NCBI RefSeq assembly: GCF_001548095.1
Contig: NZ_AP014815.1
Span: 186,001 to 250,000 of the forward strand
Direction: 5' to 3'
Origin: Geminocystis sp. NIES-3708
Lineage (GTDB): Bacteria; Cyanobacteriota; Cyanobacteriia; Cyanobacteriales; Cyanobacteriaceae
DNA length: 64,000 nt
Shown here: positions 2,847 to 30,904 of the stretch, one piece after another
Layout: the number at the start of each line of letters is the position of its first letter
How positions within the stretch are numbered: position 1 is the stretch's first letter
Notes under the pieces: generated by a model
The model's database searches: none
Seen by the model: the letters and a program-made list of their open reading frames with translations, nothing else
What the model was told of the DNA's origin: nothing
Translations under genes and position numbers: made by a program

Positions 2847-5552
2847 ATGGATTTAATTTTATGTCATCAAACAGCAGATTTCGATGCTTTAGGGGCAGCC
2901 GTCGGTTTAACAAAATTACATCATGGTGCAAAAATTGTCTTAACTGGAGGGGCTCATCCTTCGGTAAAACGTTTTCTAGCATTGCATCGAGATGAACTAA
3001 ATTTAATCGAATTTCGTAGTGTTAACCCTCAAAAAATCCGCCGTTTATTTATCGTTGATACTCAGCAAGGAGAGCGATTAGGAAAAGCATTGGAATGGTT
3101 ACAGATGAAGAGTTTAGAATCTATTACCATTTATGATCATCACCCAGAAAATAAATCTATTAGTGCGACTACTTTTAAATATATCGAAAAAGTGGGAGCT
3201 TGTTCCACAATTATTTGTGAACTTTTGCAACAAAATTCTATCACCCTTAATAATATAGAAGCCACTGTCATCGCTTTAGGTATTCATGTGGATACTGGTT
3301 CACTTACTTTTGAACAAACTACTCCCAGAGATGCCTTAGCTTTAGCATGGTTGATGAGTCAAGGAATTAATATTCGCAGTTTAAGTGAATATGTTGAACC
3401 CAGTTTATCTCCCCAATTACAAGCATTATTTCCCCAAGTATTGAAAAATTTACACACAGAGATAATTAATGGTAGTTGTGTGGGGTGGATGGTGTTAGAA
3501 ACTTCAAATTTCATTGCTGGATTGTCTAATTTAACAGAAAGAATTAGAAATTTAGTGGAAATTGATGTCTTATTGTTAGGACATTTTTATGGTAAAAAAG
3601 GCAAACAAGGAAAATTAACAATTATTGGACGTAGTAAGTTAGAGTCTGTGAATTTAGCTAATATTTTCACAGATTTTGGCGGTGGTGGACACAGTAGTGC
3701 GGCTTCTTTTTGTTGGCGATGTGATAATCCTCAAGATGTAATCGATAATTTACTACATCGTATTAAAAATTTAATTCCTCTTTCTCTTACCGCAACAGAT
3801 TTAATGTCATCTCCTGTAAGAACAATTATTCCTTACACGACTATAGAAGAAGCTCAAAGAATTTTACTCCGTTATGGACATTCTGGTTTATGTGTTGTGA
3901 ATAAAGAAGGAGAATTGCAAGGAGTGATTTCTCGTCGTGACATTGATTTAGCTTTACATCATGGCTTTTCCCATGCACCTGTTAAAGGTTATATGACAAA
4001 AAATGTACAAGTAATTAACCCTGATACTTCTTTAAATGAGATTGAAGGATTGATGGTAAATAATGATATTGGCAGATTACCCGTCATTAGGGATCATCAA
4101 TTATTAGGCATTGTTACCCGCACAGATGTTTTAAGGTATCTTCATCAACCTAACTTCAATCTCGATAATTCTCAGGAAAAAGAAAATTCTCCTTTACTGT
4201 CTTGTTTTTTTCCCTCTTTGGCAAAACATTTACATCCATCCATCTGGAAATTATTACAACAGGCGGCAAGTTATGCACAAAGTCAAGGATGGCATCTTTA
4301 TCTGGTAGGAGGAGGAGTAAGAGATTTATTACTGACACCAGAATCCGAAACTTTCTCCTTACAAGATATTGATTTAGTAGTAGACGGTTTTCATCGTAAT
4401 GCTGTTACTGAAGCAGGAGTCAAATTAGCTGAAGCACTACAAAGTTTTTATCCTCAAGCCCGTCTCAGTATTCATGGAGAGTTTCAGACGGCGGCTTTAT
4501 TATGGCATAAAGACAAAAATTTAGGCTCATTATGGTTAGATATTGCCACTGCACGCACGGAGTTTTATCCTTATCCAGCCGCAAATCCAGAAGTTGAATC
4601 TTCTTCCATTCGTCAAGATTTATATCGCCGAGATTTTACTATTAATGCCTTGGCTATAAGGCTTACTAATCCTCATGGTGGTGAGTTATTAGATTTTTTC
4701 GGTGGTTTACAGGATTTACGCTCGAATCTTATCAAAGTTTTGCATCCTAATAGCTTTATAGAAGATCCTACCAGAATTTTTCGGGCGGTGAGATTTGCAG
4801 TAAGATTAAATTTTACCATCGAAAACCAAACAAGAGAATATATCAACTATGCTATTTCTAGTGGCGTTTATGAAAGAGTTTCCCTCGAAAAAACTTCTAT
4901 TCCTGCTTTAACAACCCGTTTGAAAGCAGAATTAACTTATATTCTTCAAGCCAAATACTGGAAACAGGCTTTAAAATTATTAGACGAAGTAGGTGCATTA
5001 ATTTGTTTACATCCTCAGTGTAAATTGACTCCTGAATTATGGTGGCAAATTCGTTGTCTTCATCGATGGTTAAGATACTATAATTTGAATCAACAAAATC
5101 AGAAAGTATCTTCTTGGTTATTAAGACTAGAAATTATTTTGGCATCTTTTGAAGAAGGAGTAAAAGTAGCTGAAAATTTACAATTACCGAAAGAAAGTAT
5201 TGAAAGATTAAGACACCTATCAATTGATAATGAAAAAATTAAAAATAGATTACTCTCTTGTGAAAGTATAAGTCAAAAGGTAGAATTTTTAGCAATCTAT
5301 CAACCTTTTACCCTTTTACTTATCGCCGTCAAAAATAATAAACAAATTAGAAGTATTCTTTGGGATTATTTAATGCACTGGAGTAAAATAAAATCTCCTT
5401 TAAATGGAAAAGATTTACAGAATTTGGGTTATAAACCAGGGAAACAATATAAAGAAATGTTAACAAAAGTACAGGCTTTAGTATTAGATGGCAAGATTAA
5501 AAATAAAAAAGAGGCAATGGATTTTATTAGTAACAACTATCCCCTTGTATAA
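2847..5552 (+). CDS. DHH-CBS-poly(A) polymerase fusion, probable A-adding tRNA nucleotidyltransferase
   Basis: A 901-residue, three-part protein. Residues 1-310 are a DHH phosphoesterase: DFDALGAA at 11-18, DHH at 97-99 and the DHHA1 signature GGGGHSSAA at 278-286. Residues about 315-435 hold two CBS domains, likely nucleotide sensors. Residues about 475-900 are a class II nucleotidyltransferase: GGGVRD at 488-493, metal-binding DID at 507-509, RRDFTIN at 594-600 and DPTRIFRAVRF near 645. Some bacteria, including cyanobacteria and Aquifex, split CCA addition between CC-adding and A-adding enzymes, and the DHH/CBS-extended form is generally the A-adding one. A-specificity is inferred. It completes or repairs tRNA 3' ends. 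Confidence 0.85.
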   Translation: MDLILCHQTADFDALGAAVGLTKLHHGAKIVLTGGAHPSVKRFLALHRDELNLIEFRSVNPQKIRRLFIVDTQQGERLGKALEWLQMKSLESITIYDHHPENKSISATTFKYIEKVGACSTIICELLQQNSITLNNIEATVIALGIHVDTGSLTFEQTTPRDALALAWLMSQGINIRSLSEYVEPSLSPQLQALFPQVLKNLHTEIINGSCVGWMVLETSNFIAGLSNLTERIRNLVEIDVLLLGHFYGKKGKQGKLTIIGRSKLESVNLANIFTDFGGGGHSSAASFCWRCDNPQDVIDNLLHRIKNLIPLSLTATDLMSSPVRTIIPYTTIEEAQRILLRYGHSGLCVVNKEGELQGVISRRDIDLALHHGFSHAPVKGYMTKNVQVINPDTSLNEIEGLMVNNDIGRLPVIRDHQLLGIVTRTDVLRYLHQPNFNLDNSQEKENSPLLSCFFPSLAKHLHPSIWKLLQQAASYAQSQGWHLYLVGGGVRDLLLTPESETFSLQDIDLVVDGFHRNAVTEAGVKLAEALQSFYPQARLSIHGEFQTAALLWHKDKNLGSLWLDIATARTEFYPYPAANPEVESSSIRQDLYRRDFTINALAIRLTNPHGGELLDFFGGLQDLRSNLIKVLHPNSFIEDPTRIFRAVRFAVRLNFTIENQTREYINYAISSGVYERVSLEKTSIPALTTRLKAELTYILQAKYWKQALKLLDEVGALICLHPQCKLTPELWWQIRCLHRWLRYYNLNQQNQKVSSWLLRLEIILASFEEGVKVAENLQLPKESIERLRHLSIDNEKIKNRLLSCESISQKVEFLAIYQPFTLLLIAVKNNKQIRSILWDYLMHWSKIKSPLNGKDLQNLGYKPGKQYKEMLTKVQALVLDGKIKNKKEAMDFISNNYPLV

Positions 5553-6106: not shown

Positions 6107-7342
6107 ATGAATAGAAAATTTTTATTAACTATCTTAGTATTAATGGGAATTCCTTTTTTTTTAACCATTCAAAAAATAACATCTAAAGCCGAAACTACAA
6201 GTTTTACTAATGACTTTTTAAAATGTGAAAATGAACAATGTTTTTCTGTTAAAAATCAAACACTATCATCAAAAAGTATTGCTAATAATACGACTATTGA
6301 TAAACCAAAAATAGAAATAGCAATCTTACTCGATTCTAGTAATAGTATGGATGGTTTAATTGAGCAAACTCGAACTCAAATCTGGAAAGTTATTAACGCC
6401 ATCTCTGATGTTACGAAGAATGAAGAAAAACCTATTTTTCGAGTGTCTCTTTATCATTATGGTAATAATTCCCTGCCTTCTGTAGAAGGATTTCAAAGAA
6501 TGCTTAACGAGTTAACAACAGATTTGGATGTTGTCTCAGAAAAACTATTTAGTATTCAAACTAATGGAGGGCAAGAATATTCAGGTTGGGTCATTGATTC
6601 AGCGACAAAAGAGTTGCAATGGAGTGATAATCCAGATGATTTTCGTGTCATATTTATAGCAGGAAATGAACCTTTTGATCAAGGTAGTATGGATTGGCAA
6701 AAAGCGATTAATTCGGCGGTAAAAAAAGATATTTTAGTTAATACAATTTATTGTGGTTTGGCAGAAAACTCGGAAAGTGATTTATGGGTGAAGGCGGCGG
6801 ATATGGGTAAGGGTAACTTTTTTAATATTAATCAAGATCAAGAATTTGTCAATATTCCCAGTCCTCATGATAAACAGATTACTGACTTAAATCAATCATT
6901 AAATCAAACTTATATTCCTTATGGTAATCAAGGTAATATTGGTTATGCAAGACAACAACAACAGGACATGAATGCTATTAGTAGCCCTAATTCTGAAGCT
7001 GTGTTAAATCGTGCCGTGACAAAAACTACGAGTAATTATCGTAATTCTAATTGGGATTTAGTTGATGCTTTTACTGATGGGGTTACGGATTTAAAAGCTA
7101 TAGATAATAACAGTTTACCAGAAAATATGCGGGGAATGACTACAGAAGAAAAGATAAAATATATTCAAACCATGAAGGAAGAAAGAGAAAAAATCAGTAA
7201 ACAAATAGCTGAATTATCTCAAAAAAGAGATGATTATATTCGCAAAAATCTTCCTCAATCTTTTCAAGAAAATACCCTCGATATTTTAATGATTGAAACT
7301 TTAAAAAAACAATTATCAGCAAAAGGATTTATTGTTAAATAA
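6107..7342 (+). CDS. Secreted von Willebrand factor A domain protein
   Basis: A 411-residue protein with an N-terminal signal peptide (residues about 4-28, ending TSKAET). Residues about 68-250 form a VWA domain: the metal-ion-dependent adhesion site DSSNS is at 76-80, and a Thr/Asp-containing strand follows in the FRVIFIAGNEPFDQG region. The C-terminal 150 residues are Gln/Asn-rich, then a charged coiled-coil-like stretch (MKEEREKISKQIAELSQKRD). VWA domains bind protein partners through a divalent metal, so a periplasmic or envelope adhesion or scaffold role is plausible. AGGAAAT lies about 8 bases before the ATG. It appears monocistronic. Confidence 0.8.
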   Translation: MNRKFLLTILVLMGIPFFLTIQKITSKAETTSFTNDFLKCENEQCFSVKNQTLSSKSIANNTTIDKPKIEIAILLDSSNSMDGLIEQTRTQIWKVINAISDVTKNEEKPIFRVSLYHYGNNSLPSVEGFQRMLNELTTDLDVVSEKLFSIQTNGGQEYSGWVIDSATKELQWSDNPDDFRVIFIAGNEPFDQGSMDWQKAINSAVKKDILVNTIYCGLAENSESDLWVKAADMGKGNFFNINQDQEFVNIPSPHDKQITDLNQSLNQTYIPYGNQGNIGYARQQQQDMNAISSPNSEAVLNRAVTKTTSNYRNSNWDLVDAFTDGVTDLKAIDNNSLPENMRGMTTEEKIKYIQTMKEEREKISKQIAELSQKRDDYIRKNLPQSFQENTLDILMIETLKKQLSAKGFIVK

Positions 7343-25584: not shown

Positions 25585-25620
25585 ATTCCCCTCTAAAGAT
25601 TGAGAGGAGAATCATTTTTA
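25585..25620 (+). terminator. Hairpin terminator after the metal permease
   Basis: ATTCCCCTCT (25585-25594) pairs with AGAGGAGAAT (25603-25612) with one C:A mismatch and an 8-base loop, followed by CATTTTTA. It lies between the convergent permease and cynS stops. Confidence 0.65.
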
Positions 25621-26061
25621 CCATTTTTTATAAGGCAAGAATTTACCACACATGACAACTTTTACTCTGTCTCCTTTCACATCTTCTATTTTTTCTACAT
25701 CCAAAGTGAAATCAATAGCACTCATAATTCCATCTCCAAATTTTTCTTGAATGACGTCTTTTAAAGGCATTCCATAAACCTGCATAATTTCGTAAAAACG
25801 ATAAATCAAAGGATCAGTAGGAATAACAGGCTCTAATGAACCTTTAACAGAAGAAACGGTTAATTCTTGTGCTAATTCTTGTGGTAATCCTAAAACCTCC
25901 AAAATTTTTTTCGCTTCAGTTTCATCAGCAGTGGCTTGGCGGTAAAAAACAGAGGCAATCCAAACTTCATCTCTACCTAAAATTTTTTCTAATTCTTCAA
26001 ATGTAATTCCTTTTGCTTGTTTTGCCGCTATTAATTTTTCAGTGATTTTTGCGATCGCCAT
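25618..26061 (-). CDS. cynS: Cyanate hydratase (cyanase)
   Basis: A 147-residue full-length cyanase, which converts cyanate and bicarbonate to ammonium and CO2 through carbamate. The N-terminal part is a lambda-repressor-like helix bundle ([17 protein letters not shown]... region). The C-terminal catalytic domain has the Arg, Glu and Ser positions in [13 protein letters not shown] (R, E) and the [11 protein letters not shown] (S) motif. The ATG overlaps a HIP1 octamer at 26051-26058. In cyanobacteria cynS is usually under nitrogen control by NtcA; I found no clean GTA-N8-TAC site upstream. It is encoded without the cynABD cyanate transporter. Confidence 0.95.
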
Positions 26062-26311
26062 AATTTTTTTTTCTTGATAATATTAAACATCAATTATGAA
26101 ATTATTCAGTTTCTGCAAATTGTCTTCAATGATACAAAGTTAAACAATTAAATTTTATATTTCAACATTATTACTACATGAAAATCAAAAGTGATAATTG
26201 TCTAAATTCAATGTATTAATTTAGTTTTAATTTCTTGACATTTTATTAGAGGTAACATATTTTTTTGTATTATAATTTTTAATTATTTGTTTTTATAATG
26301 TACATTAATGC

Positions 26312-26461
26312 ACATTGAAGATAATCACTGAGTGTTTGTCCACAGATAACAATTTTACGGTCATTACCTTTCACTGTTTGAATTACCATTTCTACTATAT
26401 ATTTAACTGCTTGGTTATGTTCATCGAAAATGTCTGCTATCAATGAGGAATCTCGATCGAA
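26312..26461 (-). pseudogene. Remnant of the C-terminal part of a PEP synthase gene
   Basis: On the minus strand, codons from FDRDSSLIADIFDEH through DRKIVICGQTLSDY align with the intact PpsA C-terminal region (LDRDSSLVAHIFDER ... NRKIGICGQAPSDY); I count 31 identities in 46 positions. The catalytic ICGQ segment is retained. The similarity begins and ends abruptly, without a start codon, so it is a fragment. It has the same orientation as ppsA and flanks the ATPase/DUF4276 pair on the far side. It sits in the 438-bp gap between cynS and DUF4276; the remainder of that gap is AT-rich with nothing else I can support. Confidence 0.8.
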
Positions 26462-26499: not shown

Positions 26500-27108
26500 C
26501 TAAATTATTTCTAGTAAACCTTGAACAAAAATCTGGAAACTTTGAGAGCGATTCTCGTATGGATTCATGTACTGAGAAATTTCTCTTGCACAGGCTAATT
26601 TTTGTAATCCACCTTTAAAATAACCTGCTCTGTTTAAAATTTTTTCTAATGCTTCCCAAGTTCCTCCTTTTATATTATCGGGATTCCGATAAGATTTTTG
26701 ATTGACTAGATTTTGCGGTACCCTTGGATAGGCTTGACGAAGAGCATTTATATCACCAAAAAACCATGCCTCTAATTCTTCTACAACAATGCGGTTAAGA
26801 ACTTGAAAATCTTGATTATTTGTTTTTGAACTTTTAGTAATAAAACCATTTTGTTTAGCAATATCTTCTAATTTTTGTTTTAATTTAAGACAATCTTCTC
26901 TATCTTCATCAATCATAACAACTATTTTGTAATCATTAGGAATTCAAGCCTTATAACCTTTTAAACGATTAGGCAGTTTTTTCAATAAATCTTCTTTCCC
27001 TCGAAAATCGTGAATGTTAAAAGCTATTTCGGAGGATAGTATTTTTGGTAATAAATTTTGTAACGCTTCTTTTAACGATGCTTCCTCGACTAAAAATTCT
27101 AAATTCAC
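26500..27108 (-). pseudogene. DUF4276 (Toprim-like) gene interrupted by one in-frame TGA
   Basis: GTG at 27106-27108, preceded by GAGGAG at 9 bases, opens a frame that reads VNLEFLVEEASLKEAL, continues 54 codons, meets TGA at 26944-26946, then goes on in the same frame to 26500 (202 sense codons in all). The stop lies in GYKA-stop-IPNDYKIVVMIDEDRED, where DUF4276 proteins normally have Trp (AWIP-type), so TGG to TGA is a single transition. The acidic motifs LVEE and IDED match a Toprim-like site. The ATPase stop is 19 bases upstream. Translation could restart at Met65, but that product lacks the first acidic motif. Confidence 0.8.
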
Positions 27109-27127
27109 GATTATTTACTCCTCAAAT

Positions 27128-28339
27128 TTATCTTCCTAAACCAGAATTTTTCAAAGGATTTCCTACATCAAAATGATCTTCCATCCATAAAGAACCTAAT
27201 AATGCACCATGTTCAATAAATTCTTTTACTCCCTTCATATCTGCTGTTCTTTTTGCTTGGGTAAAACCTTTTTCATCTCGGTATAAAACCCACAACTCTT
27301 CAGGTTTTAAAGAATCTACAAAGAAGGGAGAATGAGTTGTCACCATTAATTGAGTGTGACTAGATGCACTACGACATTCTTCTGCTAATTCAGGCAATAA
27401 GCGAGGATGTAAATGATTTTCTGGTTCTTCTATGCTTACTAATTGAGGTGGTTGAGGATCGTATAACACAGTTAAATAAGCTAACATTTTTAATGTTCCA
27501 TCAGAAGCAAATTTTGAGAGTATCGGTTGAGCAAAAGGAGCATCTTTGATTTGTAATAAAAGATGATTGTCAAGCATAATTGATGCTTCCACTTTTTCCA
27601 GACGAGGAATACGATCAGAAAGGACTTTTAATATTTGATCTAATCTTTCTGGATGTTCTTCTTTTAGATATTGAATTACATTGGGTAAATTATCTCCCGT
27701 AGGAGTTAATCTTTCTTGGGCACCTGCTTCAGTACGATTTTTAGTATTATCGGCACTAATATAAGATAAATACCAACTGGTAATAAATTTTCGTAAAGCA
27801 CTAACCCGTGGATGTCTAGAGAACTGTCCTAAAGTATTCACCGCTAAAAATTCTGGCGATTCTAATTTTTCTGAAATACGTTCATTTCCAGCATCGGGAG
27901 TATCACCACTAATAACTTGTCCTTCCCCTCTTTTAAAGTCTAAAAAGCGAAAAGGTTTACCACCACTTCCTCTTCTCCAATGTAACCATTCTTCAGCTAC
28001 AAAAGGATGATTATTTTCTTCTGCGATCGCCAAATGATATGTAATAATTGGTGATTTTCCGGGATGATATTTTTCCCTATATTGTATCTCAATTACAACA
28101 CATCCCTCACTACCCCTAGTACGCAATTCTCTAAATCTTCCCCGTCTATCCCATGCCGTTCTTAAACTTTCTGTAAAACATTCTGATAAAAAAGCAAAAA
28201 CATCAAAGATAGTAGATTTTCCACTGCCATTTGGCCCCAAAAATACTGTTAAAGGAGTAATCTCTTTTAATTCAAGGTTATGTAAAGCTCGATAATTTTG
28301 TACTTTCAGAGATTCTATTCTAGGAATATTTTGTTGCAT
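27128..28339 (-). CDS. AAA/OLD-type ATPase (AAA_21/RecF-like), partner of DUF4276
   Basis: A 403-residue SMC/ABC-type ATPase. [18 protein letters not shown] is the typical N-terminal strand, followed by Walker [10 protein letters not shown] at 35-43. Near the C-terminus there are a D-loop-like [11 protein letters not shown] segment, Walker [13 protein letters not shown] and the H-loop TTHSPFF. This layout is that of OLD-family and AAA_15/AAA_21 proteins, which drive anti-phage systems such as Gabija, PARIS and related two-gene modules when paired with a Toprim-type nuclease. ATG at 28339 is preferred to a TTG at 28384. The stop is 19 bases from the DUF4276 start, which implies an operon. Confidence 0.85.
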
Positions 28340-28393
28340 CTTCTTGATAAGTGGGTAAGGCCTTAATAATTTGACCCTACCCAAATATTATAA

Positions 28394-30904
28394 CTATTTA
28401 TTTGCGTCTAATCTTTCTTCTAGTTTCGCAATATCAAGCAAGGTTTTCAGTAAAGAATCAGGGTTTAAACTCATGGAATCAATACCTAATTCTACTAAGA
28501 AACGGGCAAATTCAGGGTAATCACTCGGTGCTTGTCCACAAATACCGATTTTGCGGTTATTGCGTTTCGCTTTCTCAATTACCATGCGTACCATATCTTT
28601 AACGGCATCGTTGCGTTCATCAAAAATGTGTGCTACTAATGAGGAATCTCGATCAAGTCCTAAAGTTAGTTGAGTAAGATCATTTGAACCAATAGAAAAA
28701 CCGTCAAAGATTTCGCTAAATTGATCCGCTAAAATAACGTTACTGGGAATTTCGCACATTACATAAACTTGTAAGCCATTTTCACCCCGTTTTAAACCGT
28801 GTTTTTCCATCTCTGCTAATACTCGGCGACCTTCATAGGGAGTGCGACAGAAAGGAATCATCGGAATTACGTTAATTAAGCCCATGTCATCACGGACACG
28901 TTTTAAGGCTTTACATTCTAAACCGTAAGCATCACGATATTTTTCATCATAGTAACGAGATGCACCACGCCAACCAATCATGGGGTTTTCTTCTTTAGGT
29001 TCAAAATCTGCTCCCCCTAAAAGATTAGCATACTCATTGGATTTGAAGTCAGACATCCTTACTACTACTGGATTGGGATAGAAGGCGGCTGCGATCGTAC
29101 CTACACCCTGAGCGACTTTATCTACGAAGAAATCGGATTTGTTTTCGTAACCTAGAGTTAACTGTGCAATCTCTTTCTTGACGGATTCATCGGTTAATTC
29201 ATCATATTTCATCAATGCTAAAGGATGTGCTTTGATATGATTAGCGATAATGAACTCTAAACGGGCTAAACCAACACCATCGCAAGGAATTAACGCTAAT
29301 TTGAAGGCTTCTTCGGGATTACCCACATTCATCAAGATTTTGGTGCTAGTTTTGGGTAAATTGTCCAGTTGAGTTTCTATGATGTCAAAGGGTAGTAATC
29401 CAGAATACACTCGTCCTTCTTCTCCTTCAGAACAAGACACGGTAATATCTTGACCAGTTTTGAGGATACCTGTAGCGTTACCGCAACCGACGATCGCAGG
29501 AATACCCATTTCACGGGCAATAATCGCCGCATGACAGGTGCGTCCCCCTTGGTTAGTGACGATGGCACTAGCTTTTTTCATGATAGGTTCCCAGTCGGGA
29601 TCGGTTTTGTTAGTTACAAGCACTTCACCTGCTTTAAACTCACCAATTTTATGTACATCAAGGATAACACGGGCTAAACCTTGACCGATCATTTCACCGA
29701 CAGCACGACCCGTAATAAGTATTTCACTTGTAGCTTTTAGTTTATAGTCACGGAGGATACTACCTGATTTTTGCGATTGTACGGTTTCTGGACGGGCTTG
29801 TACAATGAATAATTGACTTGTTTGACCATCTTTCGCCCATTCAATATCCATAGGGCTATATTGACCCCTTTTTTCGCTGTAATGATCTTCAATAATACAA
29901 GCCCATTTGGCGAGGGTTAAGGCTTCTTCATCGGTGATGGAATATTGTAAACGCTCAGATTCTGACACAGGAACGTTTTTAACTTGTTTACCACCCCCTA
30001 AATCATACACCATTTTAATTTCTTTAGAGCCAAGACGTTTATTCAAAATGGGTTTGAAGCCTTGTTTTAGAGTTGGTTTGAAGACGAAAAATTCATCGGG
30101 GTTGACGGCACCTTGTACCACGTTTTCCCCTAAACCATAAGCGGAAGTCACGAAGGCGGCATCTTTAAAGCCTGTTTCTGTGTCGATACTAAACATAACC
30201 CCTGATGAGGCTAAGTCCGATCGTACCATTTTTTGTACACCCACCGATAAGGCGACTTCAAAATGATCAAAATTCTTGACAGTACGATATGATATAGCTC
30301 TATCTGTAAAAATGGAAGCGAAACATTTATGGCAAGATTCAAGAACTTGTTTTACTCCGTGAACGTTTAAGTAGGTTTCTTGTTGCCCTGCAAAACTAGC
30401 ATCAGGTAAGTCTTCCGCCGTTGCTGATGATCTTACAGCTACATCTATATCATAAGAGAAACTACGCAAACGCATCATTTCTTCTTCATCATCCGTAGTG
30501 CAGAGATTAGGATTATTACCATAGCGTTCACAAAGTGTAAAATAAGCCTCAGAAATAGCTAAATCTAACTCTTTGGGGAAAGGAGTATTTAACACCAACG
30601 CTCTAGCCTGTCGTCCAACAGCTTGTAAATTGGGCAAATCTTCCACGTCTAAATTGGCGAAAATTTTGCGTAATTGGACTTCTAATCCTGCTTTTTTTAC
30701 AAAGTAACGATAAGCATAAGCAGTAGTAGCGAATCCTGTGGGAACATTAACACCTTTTGCGGTCAATTGTTGGATCATTTCCCCTAGGGAGGCATTTTTT
30801 CCTCCTACCATTGGCACATCTTCGATACCTACTTCTTCAAACCACAAGACGAATTTTTCTTGTTTGGTTGTAACGTTAATTCTTTCTGTGGAGGCATTTA
30901 CCAT
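28394..30904 (-). CDS. ppsA: Phosphoenolpyruvate synthase
   Basis: An 836-residue enzyme that makes phosphoenolpyruvate from pyruvate, with ATP going to AMP and phosphate. The N-terminal ATP-grasp domain has VGGKNASLGEM and SSATAEDLPDASFAGQQETYL. The central swivelling domain carries the phosphorylated His in GGRTCHAAI. The C-terminal PEP-binding barrel has GLARLEFI, DFKSNEY, MCEIPS, GSNDLTQLTLG and the catalytic Cys in ICGQAPSDYP. GGAG lies about 9 bases before the ATG. The AAA ATPase begins 55 bases downstream of its stop. It is the intact counterpart of the remnant at 26.3 kb. Confidence 0.96.
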   Translation of the reverse strand: MVNASTERINVTTKQEKFVLWFEEVGIEDVPMVGGKNASLGEMIQQLTAKGVNVPTGFATTAYAYRYFVKKAGLEVQLRKIFANLDVEDLPNLQAVGRQARALVLNTPFPKELDLAISEAYFTLCERYGNNPNLCTTDDEEEMMRLRSFSYDIDVAVRSSATAEDLPDASFAGQQETYLNVHGVKQVLESCHKCFASIFTDRAISYRTVKNFDHFEVALSVGVQKMVRSDLASSGVMFSIDTETGFKDAAFVTSAYGLGENVVQGAVNPDEFFVFKPTLKQGFKPILNKRLGSKEIKMVYDLGGGKQVKNVPVSESERLQYSITDEEALTLAKWACIIEDHYSEKRGQYSPMDIEWAKDGQTSQLFIVQARPETVQSQKSGSILRDYKLKATSEILITGRAVGEMIGQGLARVILDVHKIGEFKAGEVLVTNKTDPDWEPIMKKASAIVTNQGGRTCHAAIIAREMGIPAIVGCGNATGILKTGQDITVSCSEGEEGRVYSGLLPFDIIETQLDNLPKTSTKILMNVGNPEEAFKLALIPCDGVGLARLEFIIANHIKAHPLALMKYDELTDESVKKEIAQLTLGYENKSDFFVDKVAQGVGTIAAAFYPNPVVVRMSDFKSNEYANLLGGADFEPKEENPMIGWRGASRYYDEKYRDAYGLECKALKRVRDDMGLINVIPMIPFCRTPYEGRRVLAEMEKHGLKRGENGLQVYVMCEIPSNVILADQFSEIFDGFSIGSNDLTQLTLGLDRDSSLVAHIFDERNDAVKDMVRMVIEKAKRNNRKIGICGQAPSDYPEFARFLVELGIDSMSLNPDSLLKTLLDIAKLEERLDANK

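What the first reader, a model, noticed from the sequence alone, without database searches (positions are those of the whole stretch)
26500..28339. ATPase + DUF4276 pair: candidate two-gene defence module, broken by one nonsense codon
An OLD/AAA_21-type ATPase is followed after 19 bases by a DUF4276 gene with Toprim-like acidic motifs (LVEE, IDED). Split ATPase/Toprim pairs are the architecture of anti-phage systems such as PARIS, and a like role is inferred. The DUF4276 frame has a proper ribosome-binding site, GTG start and an otherwise continuous reading frame, but TGA at 26944-26946 replaces an expected Trp codon. One G-to-A change would explain it. Loss of the nuclease while the ATPase stays intact could reflect relief from autoimmunity.
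Basis: partly seen in the sequence, partly recalled or inferred. Interest (0 to 1): 0.75.

Follow-up and report, generated by a model that had tools for sequence, protein, structure and literature searches.

The report
Broken nuclease beside intact ATPase
A cyanobacterium-like genome carries a two-gene module that resembles known anti-virus systems, in which the predicted DNA- or RNA-cutting gene is knocked out by a stop codon while its partner stays whole, a one-sided decay that recurs in many relatives and suggests the cutter harms its own host.

Summary
An ATPase (27128-28339, -) is followed after 19 nt by a DUF4276 frame (26500-27108, -) with one in-frame TGA, codon 55, a tryptophan in at least 90% of aligned relatives. 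The pair matches PADLOC's candidate defence system HEC-01 (317 and 556 bits), not PARIS (no DUF4435 match). The DUF4276 model (pLDDT 91) matches best the Toprim region of an OLD nuclease (Foldseek E 2.8e-4). So it is a split OLD-like ATPase/nuclease pair, predicted inactive here. Among four congeners searched, one more has an open ATPase with a broken DUF4276, one only an ATPase remnant. This fits a toxic effector restrained by its ATPase. Toxicity and defence remain untested. The module sits at a ppsA 3' end where defence cassettes pile up with copies of the ppsA tail at their borders.

The parts
27128..28339 (-). ATPase gene (403 aa), HEC-01A type; [18 protein letters not shown] and THSPF read as Walker A, Walker B and H-loop (motif names recalled)
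   Evidence: AAA_21 106 bits; PADLOC PDLC04182 556 bits; fold like PtuA and OLD ATPases
26500..27108 (-). DUF4276 gene frame (GTG to TAG, 202 codons), HEC-01B type, predicted Toprim nuclease, broken
26944..26946 (-). in-frame TGA, codon 55; Trp in at least 90% of aligned relatives
27109..27127 (-). 19-nt spacer with GAGGAG (27118-27123), likely ribosome-binding site for DUF4276
26500..26916 (-). possible restart ORF (138 aa, starts MIDED) after the TGA; would lack the first strand and E8
   Evidence: restart itself is not tested
28394..30904 (-). ppsA-type gene (PPDK_N and PEP-utilizer domains; the name ppsA is recalled) upstream of the module; 54 nt separate its stop from the ATPase start
28352..28383 (-). 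hairpin between ppsA and the ATPase
   Evidence: -18.3 kcal/mol, z -3.1
26310..26458 (-). decayed 149-nt copy of the ppsA 3' region (codons about 748-800)
   Evidence: 79% to own ppsA, 81-82% to the ppsA of G002 and G004
26177..26299 (-). remnant resembling the end of the EcoRV-like gene and the start of the D12 methyltransferase gene of congener G004
   Evidence: 70.7% over 123 nt, E 1.6e-10; genes named
25618..26061 (-). cyanate lyase gene, the next open gene downstream

Best explanation
A two-gene module of the HEC-01 kind: an ABC/OLD-like ATPase (sensor and restraint) and a stand-alone Toprim nuclease, DUF4276 (effector). Shown here: gene structure, family matches, predicted fold, conserved acidic residues, the nonsense codon, and one-sided decay in relatives. 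Inferred: in a working pair the ATPase holds the DUF4276 nuclease inactive and releases or activates it when a phage product is sensed, and the nuclease then cuts host or phage nucleic acid, as AriA/AriB of PARIS do with tRNA. In this genome the nuclease should be dead: the 54-residue product has E8 but no DxD, and a restart product has DxD but no E8. The system is thus switched off and the ATPase is left without a client. The nuclease is lost first because it is costly or toxic, while losing the ATPase first would free it.
For: Membership: PADLOC HEC-01B 316.8 bits and HEC-01A 555.9 bits. Pairing: in 80 of 82 loci the ATPase lies directly upstream, and the other two begin within 140 nt of a contig end; in the order sample 108 of 129 ATPase hits have a DUF4276 hit downstream, median gap between profile matches 27 nt; in 14 of 17 reference pairs the longest DUF4276 ORF overlaps the ATPase end by 1-20 nt. 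Fold: Foldseek top hit 6njv, OLD C-terminal region, E 2.8e-4, probability 1.00. E8, D67, D69, E111, E113 and K170 are invariant in 54 sequences, in the order of the OLD residues E400, D455/D457, T506/E508, K562 (PMC6755086 passages). One-sided decay: 27 DUF4276-only against 3 ATPase-only losses in 144 loci; p = 1.7e-10 against the length-expected 1/3 and 4.2e-6 against 1/2. The other set gives 5 against 1. Congeners: G004 intact, G002 broken by insertion, G003 ATPase truncated with no DUF4276 beside it. Recent loss: on the window's branch DUF4276 has 19 silent and 9 changing substitutions, the stop included, none at these residues.
Against: I found no toxicity, nuclease or phage assay of this system in what I could read. 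The fold match is to one PDB entry below E 1e-3, with TM-scores near 0.5 and rmsd 7.3; an acidic residue at the place of OLD E404 is missing, and I could not superpose models. AriB does not appear among the 50 of 700 PDB matches shown. One-sided decay is also expected if the ATPase alone has a use. Against that use: the ATPase count of changing to silent substitutions is higher in the two genomes with a broken DUF4276 (31:48) than in the intact one (7:30), p = 0.035, with ppsA unchanged (p = 0.56); but these are small numbers from three genomes. Four loci have an open ATPase and no DUF4276 trace. The counts are not corrected for phylogeny. Defence neighbours are present but not dominant, and no control set of neighbours was run.
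Confidence: 0.68

Rival explanations
1. The ATPase has a function of its own (for example a DNA-binding or housekeeping role), so DUF4276 is dispensable and its loss is neutral rather than favoured.
For: ATPase frames stay open in 27 loci with a broken DUF4276 and in 4 loci with no DUF4276 trace (G107 twice, G202, G196:C18).
Against: The ATPase shows more amino-acid change in the two congeners with broken DUF4276 (p = 0.035). In G003 the ATPase is truncated and no DUF4276 lies beside it. The two genes otherwise co-occur tightly.
Confidence: 0.17
2. The TGA is a sequencing or assembly error and the module is intact.
For: One assembly only; the rest of the frame is well conserved with few changing substitutions.
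Against: Single nonsense codons and other lesions occur in the same gene in many relatives, mostly at different positions, and random error would hit the longer ATPase more often. Congener G002 has a 105-nt insertion in the gene.
Confidence: 0.07
3. The gene still works by stop-codon readthrough or by translation restart at the ATG 27 nt after the TGA.
For: An ATG follows closely and the frame after the TGA is conserved.
Against: Restart would lack E8 and the first strand. The stop is absent from the two congeners aligned. Other genomes carry stops at other codons, and Microcystis sp. LSC13-02 has TAG at the same codon.
Confidence: 0.05
4. The module is a true PARIS system or another characterised split system (AbiL, MADS).
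For: Same architecture; the ATPase also scores against AriA (103.9 bits), AbiLi (85.8) and mad3 (89.0) models.
Against: The best HEC-01A model scores five times higher; the DUF4276 protein has no DUF4435, AriB, AbiLii or mad4 match at E up to 0.1, and DUF4435 is not among the 14 Pfam families matched by the 54 members of A2 at E up to 1.
Confidence: 0.03

Closest known systems
HEC-01 (PADLOC, Hma-embedded candidate 01)
   Same: Both genes match its models nearly end to end, adjacent and in the order A then B.
   Different: Here the B gene is a pseudogene. HEC-01 itself is a candidate: PMC12988326 (passages) says several HECs, including HEC-06, were active; HEC-01 is not named in the passages I saw. 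One paper lists it as detected in Desulfovibrio piger (PMC12724379 passage).
PARIS (AriA ATPase + AriB Toprim tRNase)
   Same: Separate ATPase and Toprim genes; in PARIS the ATPase sequesters the effector (passages of PMC12409363).
   Different: The PARIS effector is DUF4435 (PMC9122126 passages); DUF4276 is another family. Trigger and target are unknown here.
OLD family nucleases (class 2 OLD, 6njv)
   Same: Predicted Toprim fold and order of metal-site residues.
   Different: OLD joins ATPase and Toprim in one protein; here they are two genes, and the acidic residue matching E404 is absent.
Septu/retron PtuA
   Same: The ATPase model matches retron and Septu PtuA chains best (E about 3e-14).
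   Different: PtuB, the partner in Retron-Eco7, is an HNH nuclease (PMC12409363 passage), not Toprim.
Synechocystis sp. PCC 6803 pSYSM pair SGL_RS00110/SGL_RS00115
   Same: Open ATPase and DUF4276 genes with 1-nt overlap and the aligned acidic residues.
   Different: Its DUF4276 is 33% identical to the G004 protein; it lies on a plasmid among other defence and toxin-antitoxin genes.

Membership tests
HEC-01 (PADLOC) | ATPase matching a HEC-01A model | tested here: met
   PDLC04182, 555.9 bits, residues 6-394
HEC-01 (PADLOC) | second gene matching a HEC-01B model | tested here: met
   PDLC04202, 316.8 bits, only for the frame read through its stop; the product as translated is truncated
HEC-01 (PADLOC) | adjacent, same strand, A before B | tested here: met
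   19-nt spacer
HEC-01 (PADLOC) | anti-phage activity | not testable with these tools
   no assay seen in the listings
PARIS | AAA_15 or AAA_21 ATPase | tested here: met
   AAA_21 106 bits, AAA_15 76 bits
PARIS | DUF4435 (AriB) effector | tested here: not met
   no match at E up to 0.1
OLD nuclease | Toprim fold | tested here: met
   AlphaFold2 pLDDT 91.2; Foldseek 6njv E 2.8e-4; a prediction, not a solved structure
OLD nuclease | metal-site residues E, DxD, (T/E)xE, K | tested here: inconclusive
   invariant residues in the same order (OLD residues); no superposition possible, and no acidic residue at the E404 place
OLD nuclease | ATPase and Toprim in one protein | tested here: not met
   two genes
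toxin-antitoxin-like pair | effector harmful without its partner | tested here: inconclusive
   only indirect: 27 against 3 single-gene losses

The most novel reading that the evidence does not exclude
HEC-01 works like a toxin-antitoxin pair: the ATPase is the restraint of a host-toxic Toprim nuclease, and autoimmune cost drives repeated, independent effector-first loss across cyanobacteria. In this genus the ppsA 3' end also serves as an integrase-free dock where each incoming defence cassette brings its own ppsA tail and displaces the older one.
Probability: 0.45. Interest if true: 0.62.

Novelty: new member of a known kind. Interest (0 to 1): 0.48.

Why it matters
HEC-01 is a catalogued candidate defence system for which I found no mechanism described. 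The predicted fold, the conserved residues and above all the one-sided decay turn it into a testable statement: DUF4276 is the toxic nuclease and the ATPase its restraint. An open pair lies on plasmid pSYSM of the laboratory strain Synechocystis sp. PCC 6803, so the test needs no new strain. Counting which gene of a pair breaks first could be used in general to tell effector from restraint in uncharacterised two-gene systems.

Tried and rejected
PARIS, AbiL and MADS membership: tested with Pfam, PADLOC and NCBIfam and rejected for lack of a DUF4435, AbiLii or mad4 match. Sequence searches of the PDB with DUF4276 gave no match below E 0.1, so the Toprim claim rests on the predicted fold. BFVD gave no match below E 1e-3; an RloB-like protein ranked sixth. 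Apparent breaks dropped after inspection: G049 and G089 (stop is the natural end), G395 (same), G036:C51 (the ATPase stop is its end). G017 and G239 were set aside as ambiguous because only the C-terminal end differs. G039, first counted as an ATPase loss, proved to be one deletion that took the ATPase 3' end and the DUF4276 5' end and was moved to 'both'. Left out of the counts: contig-edge cases G257, G246:C1035, G009, G022, G108, G135, G522, G397, G316; weak hits of another type G171, G241, G521, G541; and G202:C1:1296159/1296716 is one ATPase in two rows. G022 would count against my reading if kept: its ATPase match stops 67 residues short although 223 nt remain on the contig, and its DUF4276 state is unknown. 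G067's ATPase has a stop at position 12 of a reference with a longer N terminus; I counted it open because the profile match has no stop. The two samples of loci overlap (L140 and L027 are 100% identical), so they were not added together. Of the pairs called intact, 80 of the order sample and 15 of the class sample rest on profile coverage and the tool's stop count; only some were also read. The flanking-gene survey took the nearest ORF of 150-900 aa on each side, so longer genes such as many hsdR were left out, and the outputs show 25 of 153 and 25 of 88 families. A literature search for DUF4276 found 0 papers; the search for HEC-01 listed 15, of which I opened one. All papers were seen as listings, abstract starts or passages, none in full.

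Full report
WHAT IS THERE. On the minus strand the window holds a ppsA-type gene (28394-30904; PPDK_N 401 bits), 54 nt later an ATPase (28339-27128), 19 nt later a DUF4276 frame (27108-26500), then a decayed ppsA fragment and a decayed methyltransferase fragment, then cyanate lyase (25618-26061). The DUF4276 frame has GTG, a GAGGAG site and one in-frame TGA at codon 55. Read through, it covers PF14103 from end to end (120.9 bits). The genome has one DUF4276 match.

WHAT FAMILY. PADLOC names both genes HEC-01, with 316.8 bits for the nuclease gene and 555.9 bits for the ATPase. HEC stands for Hma-embedded candidate; PMC12988326 (passages only) says several HECs, HEC-06 among them, were active in assays. 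The original work it cites is not in the library. PARIS needs a DUF4435 effector (PMC9122126 passages); DUF4276 does not match it. The pair is widespread: 85 of 291 genomes of the order have a match to the DUF4276 model at E up to 1e-20 and 95 of 291 to the ATPase model at E up to 1e-50; 32 and 35 of 319 in the class sample, which shares some genomes with the order sample. A pattern scan of one genome per species gave 447 stretches, 390 of them relatives, of which the best 80 were kept, including Poribacteria, Elusimicrobia and methanogenic archaea. The viral collection gave 2.

FOLD AND ACTIVE SITE. The model of the read-through protein has mean pLDDT 91.2. Its only PDB match under E 1e-3 is 6njv, the C-terminal region of an OLD protein (E 2.8e-4, probability 1.00, TM about 0.5); PH0156 follows at 5.8e-3. 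E8, D67, D69, E111, E113 and K170 are invariant in 54 sequences. This order mirrors E400, D455/D457, T506/E508 and K562 of an OLD nuclease (PMC6755086 passages), but I could not superpose the models, and nothing matches E404. The ATPase model resembles PtuA and OLD ATPases. The TGA separates E8 from the DxD pair, so neither product could form the metal site (inference).

HOW OLD IS THE BREAK. Congeners G004 and G002 have a Trp codon at the site. On the window's branch DUF4276 shows 19 silent and 9 changing differences, the stop included, with none at the conserved residues named above. The loss therefore looks recent. G002 has the same gene broken in another way, by a 105-nt insertion with four TAA codons. 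G003 has only an N-terminal ATPase piece (265 of 403 residues) at this place and no DUF4276 beside it; it has another DUF4276 elsewhere, next to a distant ATPase. G001 has neither gene above the cut-offs, and nothing but ppsA was found in the stretch after its ppsA, which ends 2.1 kb on at the contig end. So of five genomes of the genus one has an open pair here (G004), two have an open ATPase with broken DUF4276, one has a remnant and one has none.

WHICH GENE BREAKS FIRST. Parsing searches gave 129 ATPase hits and 114 DUF4276 hits, with 108 ATPase hits in pairs. The apparent breaks and the solitary hits were re-examined with subfamily references. Of 123 usable loci of the order sample: 83 both intact, 2 ambiguous, 23 DUF4276 broken with traces left and ATPase open, 4 ATPase open with no DUF4276 trace, 3 ATPase broken with DUF4276 open (G051, G152, G256:C197), 1 DUF4276 with no ATPase found nearby (G275), 7 both broken. 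Of 21 further loci of the class sample: 16 intact, 4 DUF4276 broken, 0 ATPase broken, 1 both. In all this is 27 against 3 of 144; p = 1.7e-10 against one third and 4.2e-6 against one half. With G039 counted as an ATPase loss it is 27 against 4, p = 8.8e-10 and 1.7e-5. Restricted to nonsense, frameshift or insertion it is 16 against 1 (p = 2.7e-7 against one third). The one-third expectation also holds for one-step stop mutations (0.338). In the loci, 5 of 82 have a nonsense codon in DUF4276, and 1 of the 80 with an ATPase has it broken; this set was drawn by DUF4276 and overlaps the other. The nonsense codons lie at 11 and 38, 20 (two loci of different subfamilies), 55 (two loci, TGA and TAG), 103, 106, 110, 111, 115, 137 and 169, so most are separate events; G050 and G072 share one lesion. 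I did not build a tree. Sequencing error would hit the longer gene more often, so it does not explain the bias.

WHAT THIS MEANS. If the ATPase only activated the nuclease, losing either gene would be equally harmless and the longer ATPase would break more often. The reverse is seen, as expected if free DUF4276 is harmful and the ATPase restrains it, as AriA restrains AriB (PMC12409363 passages). The rival, a separate use of the ATPase, is weakened by the higher share of amino-acid changes in the ATPase of the two congeners with broken DUF4276 (31:48 against 7:30, p = 0.035) while ppsA shows no difference (p = 0.56). That test is small. The harm itself has not been measured.

NEIGHBOURHOOD. 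In an IMG/VR contig the pair sits in a type I restriction operon, hsdM-hsdS-ATPase-DUF4276-hsdR (L200). On a Meiothermus plasmid the order is hsdS-DUF4433-macro domain-ATPase-DUF4276-hsdR. In Synechocystis sp. PCC 6803 it lies on pSYSM beside nucleotidyltransferase/DUF86, RelE/HigA and a phosphorothioation-associated gene. In the passages of the PCC 6803 toxin-antitoxin inventory that I saw (PMC4963859) the neighbouring pairs are listed and this one is not. Of 126 flanking ORFs of 82 loci (150-900 aa only), 7 match Methylase_S, 3 HSDR_N and 5 TIR_2, but 8 are sigma-70 factors, so some copies lie among ordinary genes. No control set of flanking genes was run.

THE ppsA DOCK. In G000, G002, G003 and G004 the ATPase is preceded by the same ppsA tail and leader (97-99% identical over 75-88 nt), with a predicted hairpin in the window. 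In G000 and G002 this is the real ppsA end. In G003 and G004 it is a second tail, placed after other cargo: in G004 DUF433/DUF5615, an EcoRV-type restriction enzyme (399 bits) and a D12 methyltransferase. G004 has a third tail after DUF4276. In G000 the old ppsA piece and a piece of that restriction cassette lie after DUF4276, the reverse order of G004. The simplest reading (inference) is that each cassette arrived with a ppsA end, recombined in ppsA and pushed the older end downstream. None of the five G004 ORFs that I searched with Pfam is an integrase; the other ORFs there were not searched.

LIMITS. One assembly; no reads; no assays; the genomes from the genome search are unnamed; counts are not phylogenetically corrected; most pairs called intact were judged by profile coverage.

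Noticed in passing
window 26310-26458; L022 (G004) 4780-4864, 6831-6932, 9558; L100 (G003) 4744-4797: Copies of the ppsA 3' tail border defence cassettes downstream of ppsA, in different orders in congeners; looks like repeated docking at the ppsA end without a visible integrase.
   Followed up: partly
window 26177-26299: Remnant of an EcoRV-type/D12 methyltransferase restriction cassette that is open in congener G004.
   Followed up: partly
L023 (G002) about 5164-5268: 105-nt insertion in DUF4276 with a CCCCCTAGCCCCC-containing sequence, perhaps a small dispersed repeat of cyanobacteria (recalled resemblance).
   Followed up: no
L146 codon 55 of DUF4276: Microcystis sp. LSC13-02 has a TAG at the same conserved tryptophan codon as the window's TGA: an independent hit at the same codon.
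   Followed up: yes
L200 855-8698; L276 1-7644: ATPase-DUF4276 pair embedded between hsdS and hsdR of type I restriction operons.
   Followed up: yes
L275 (pSYSM of Synechocystis sp. PCC 6803) 3811-5552: Open pair in a laboratory cyanobacterium, a ready test bed.
   Followed up: partly
L100 (G003), between ppsA and the ATPase: Opposite-strand stretch that seems to encode an NPPY-type methyltransferase remnant, read by eye only.
   Followed up: no
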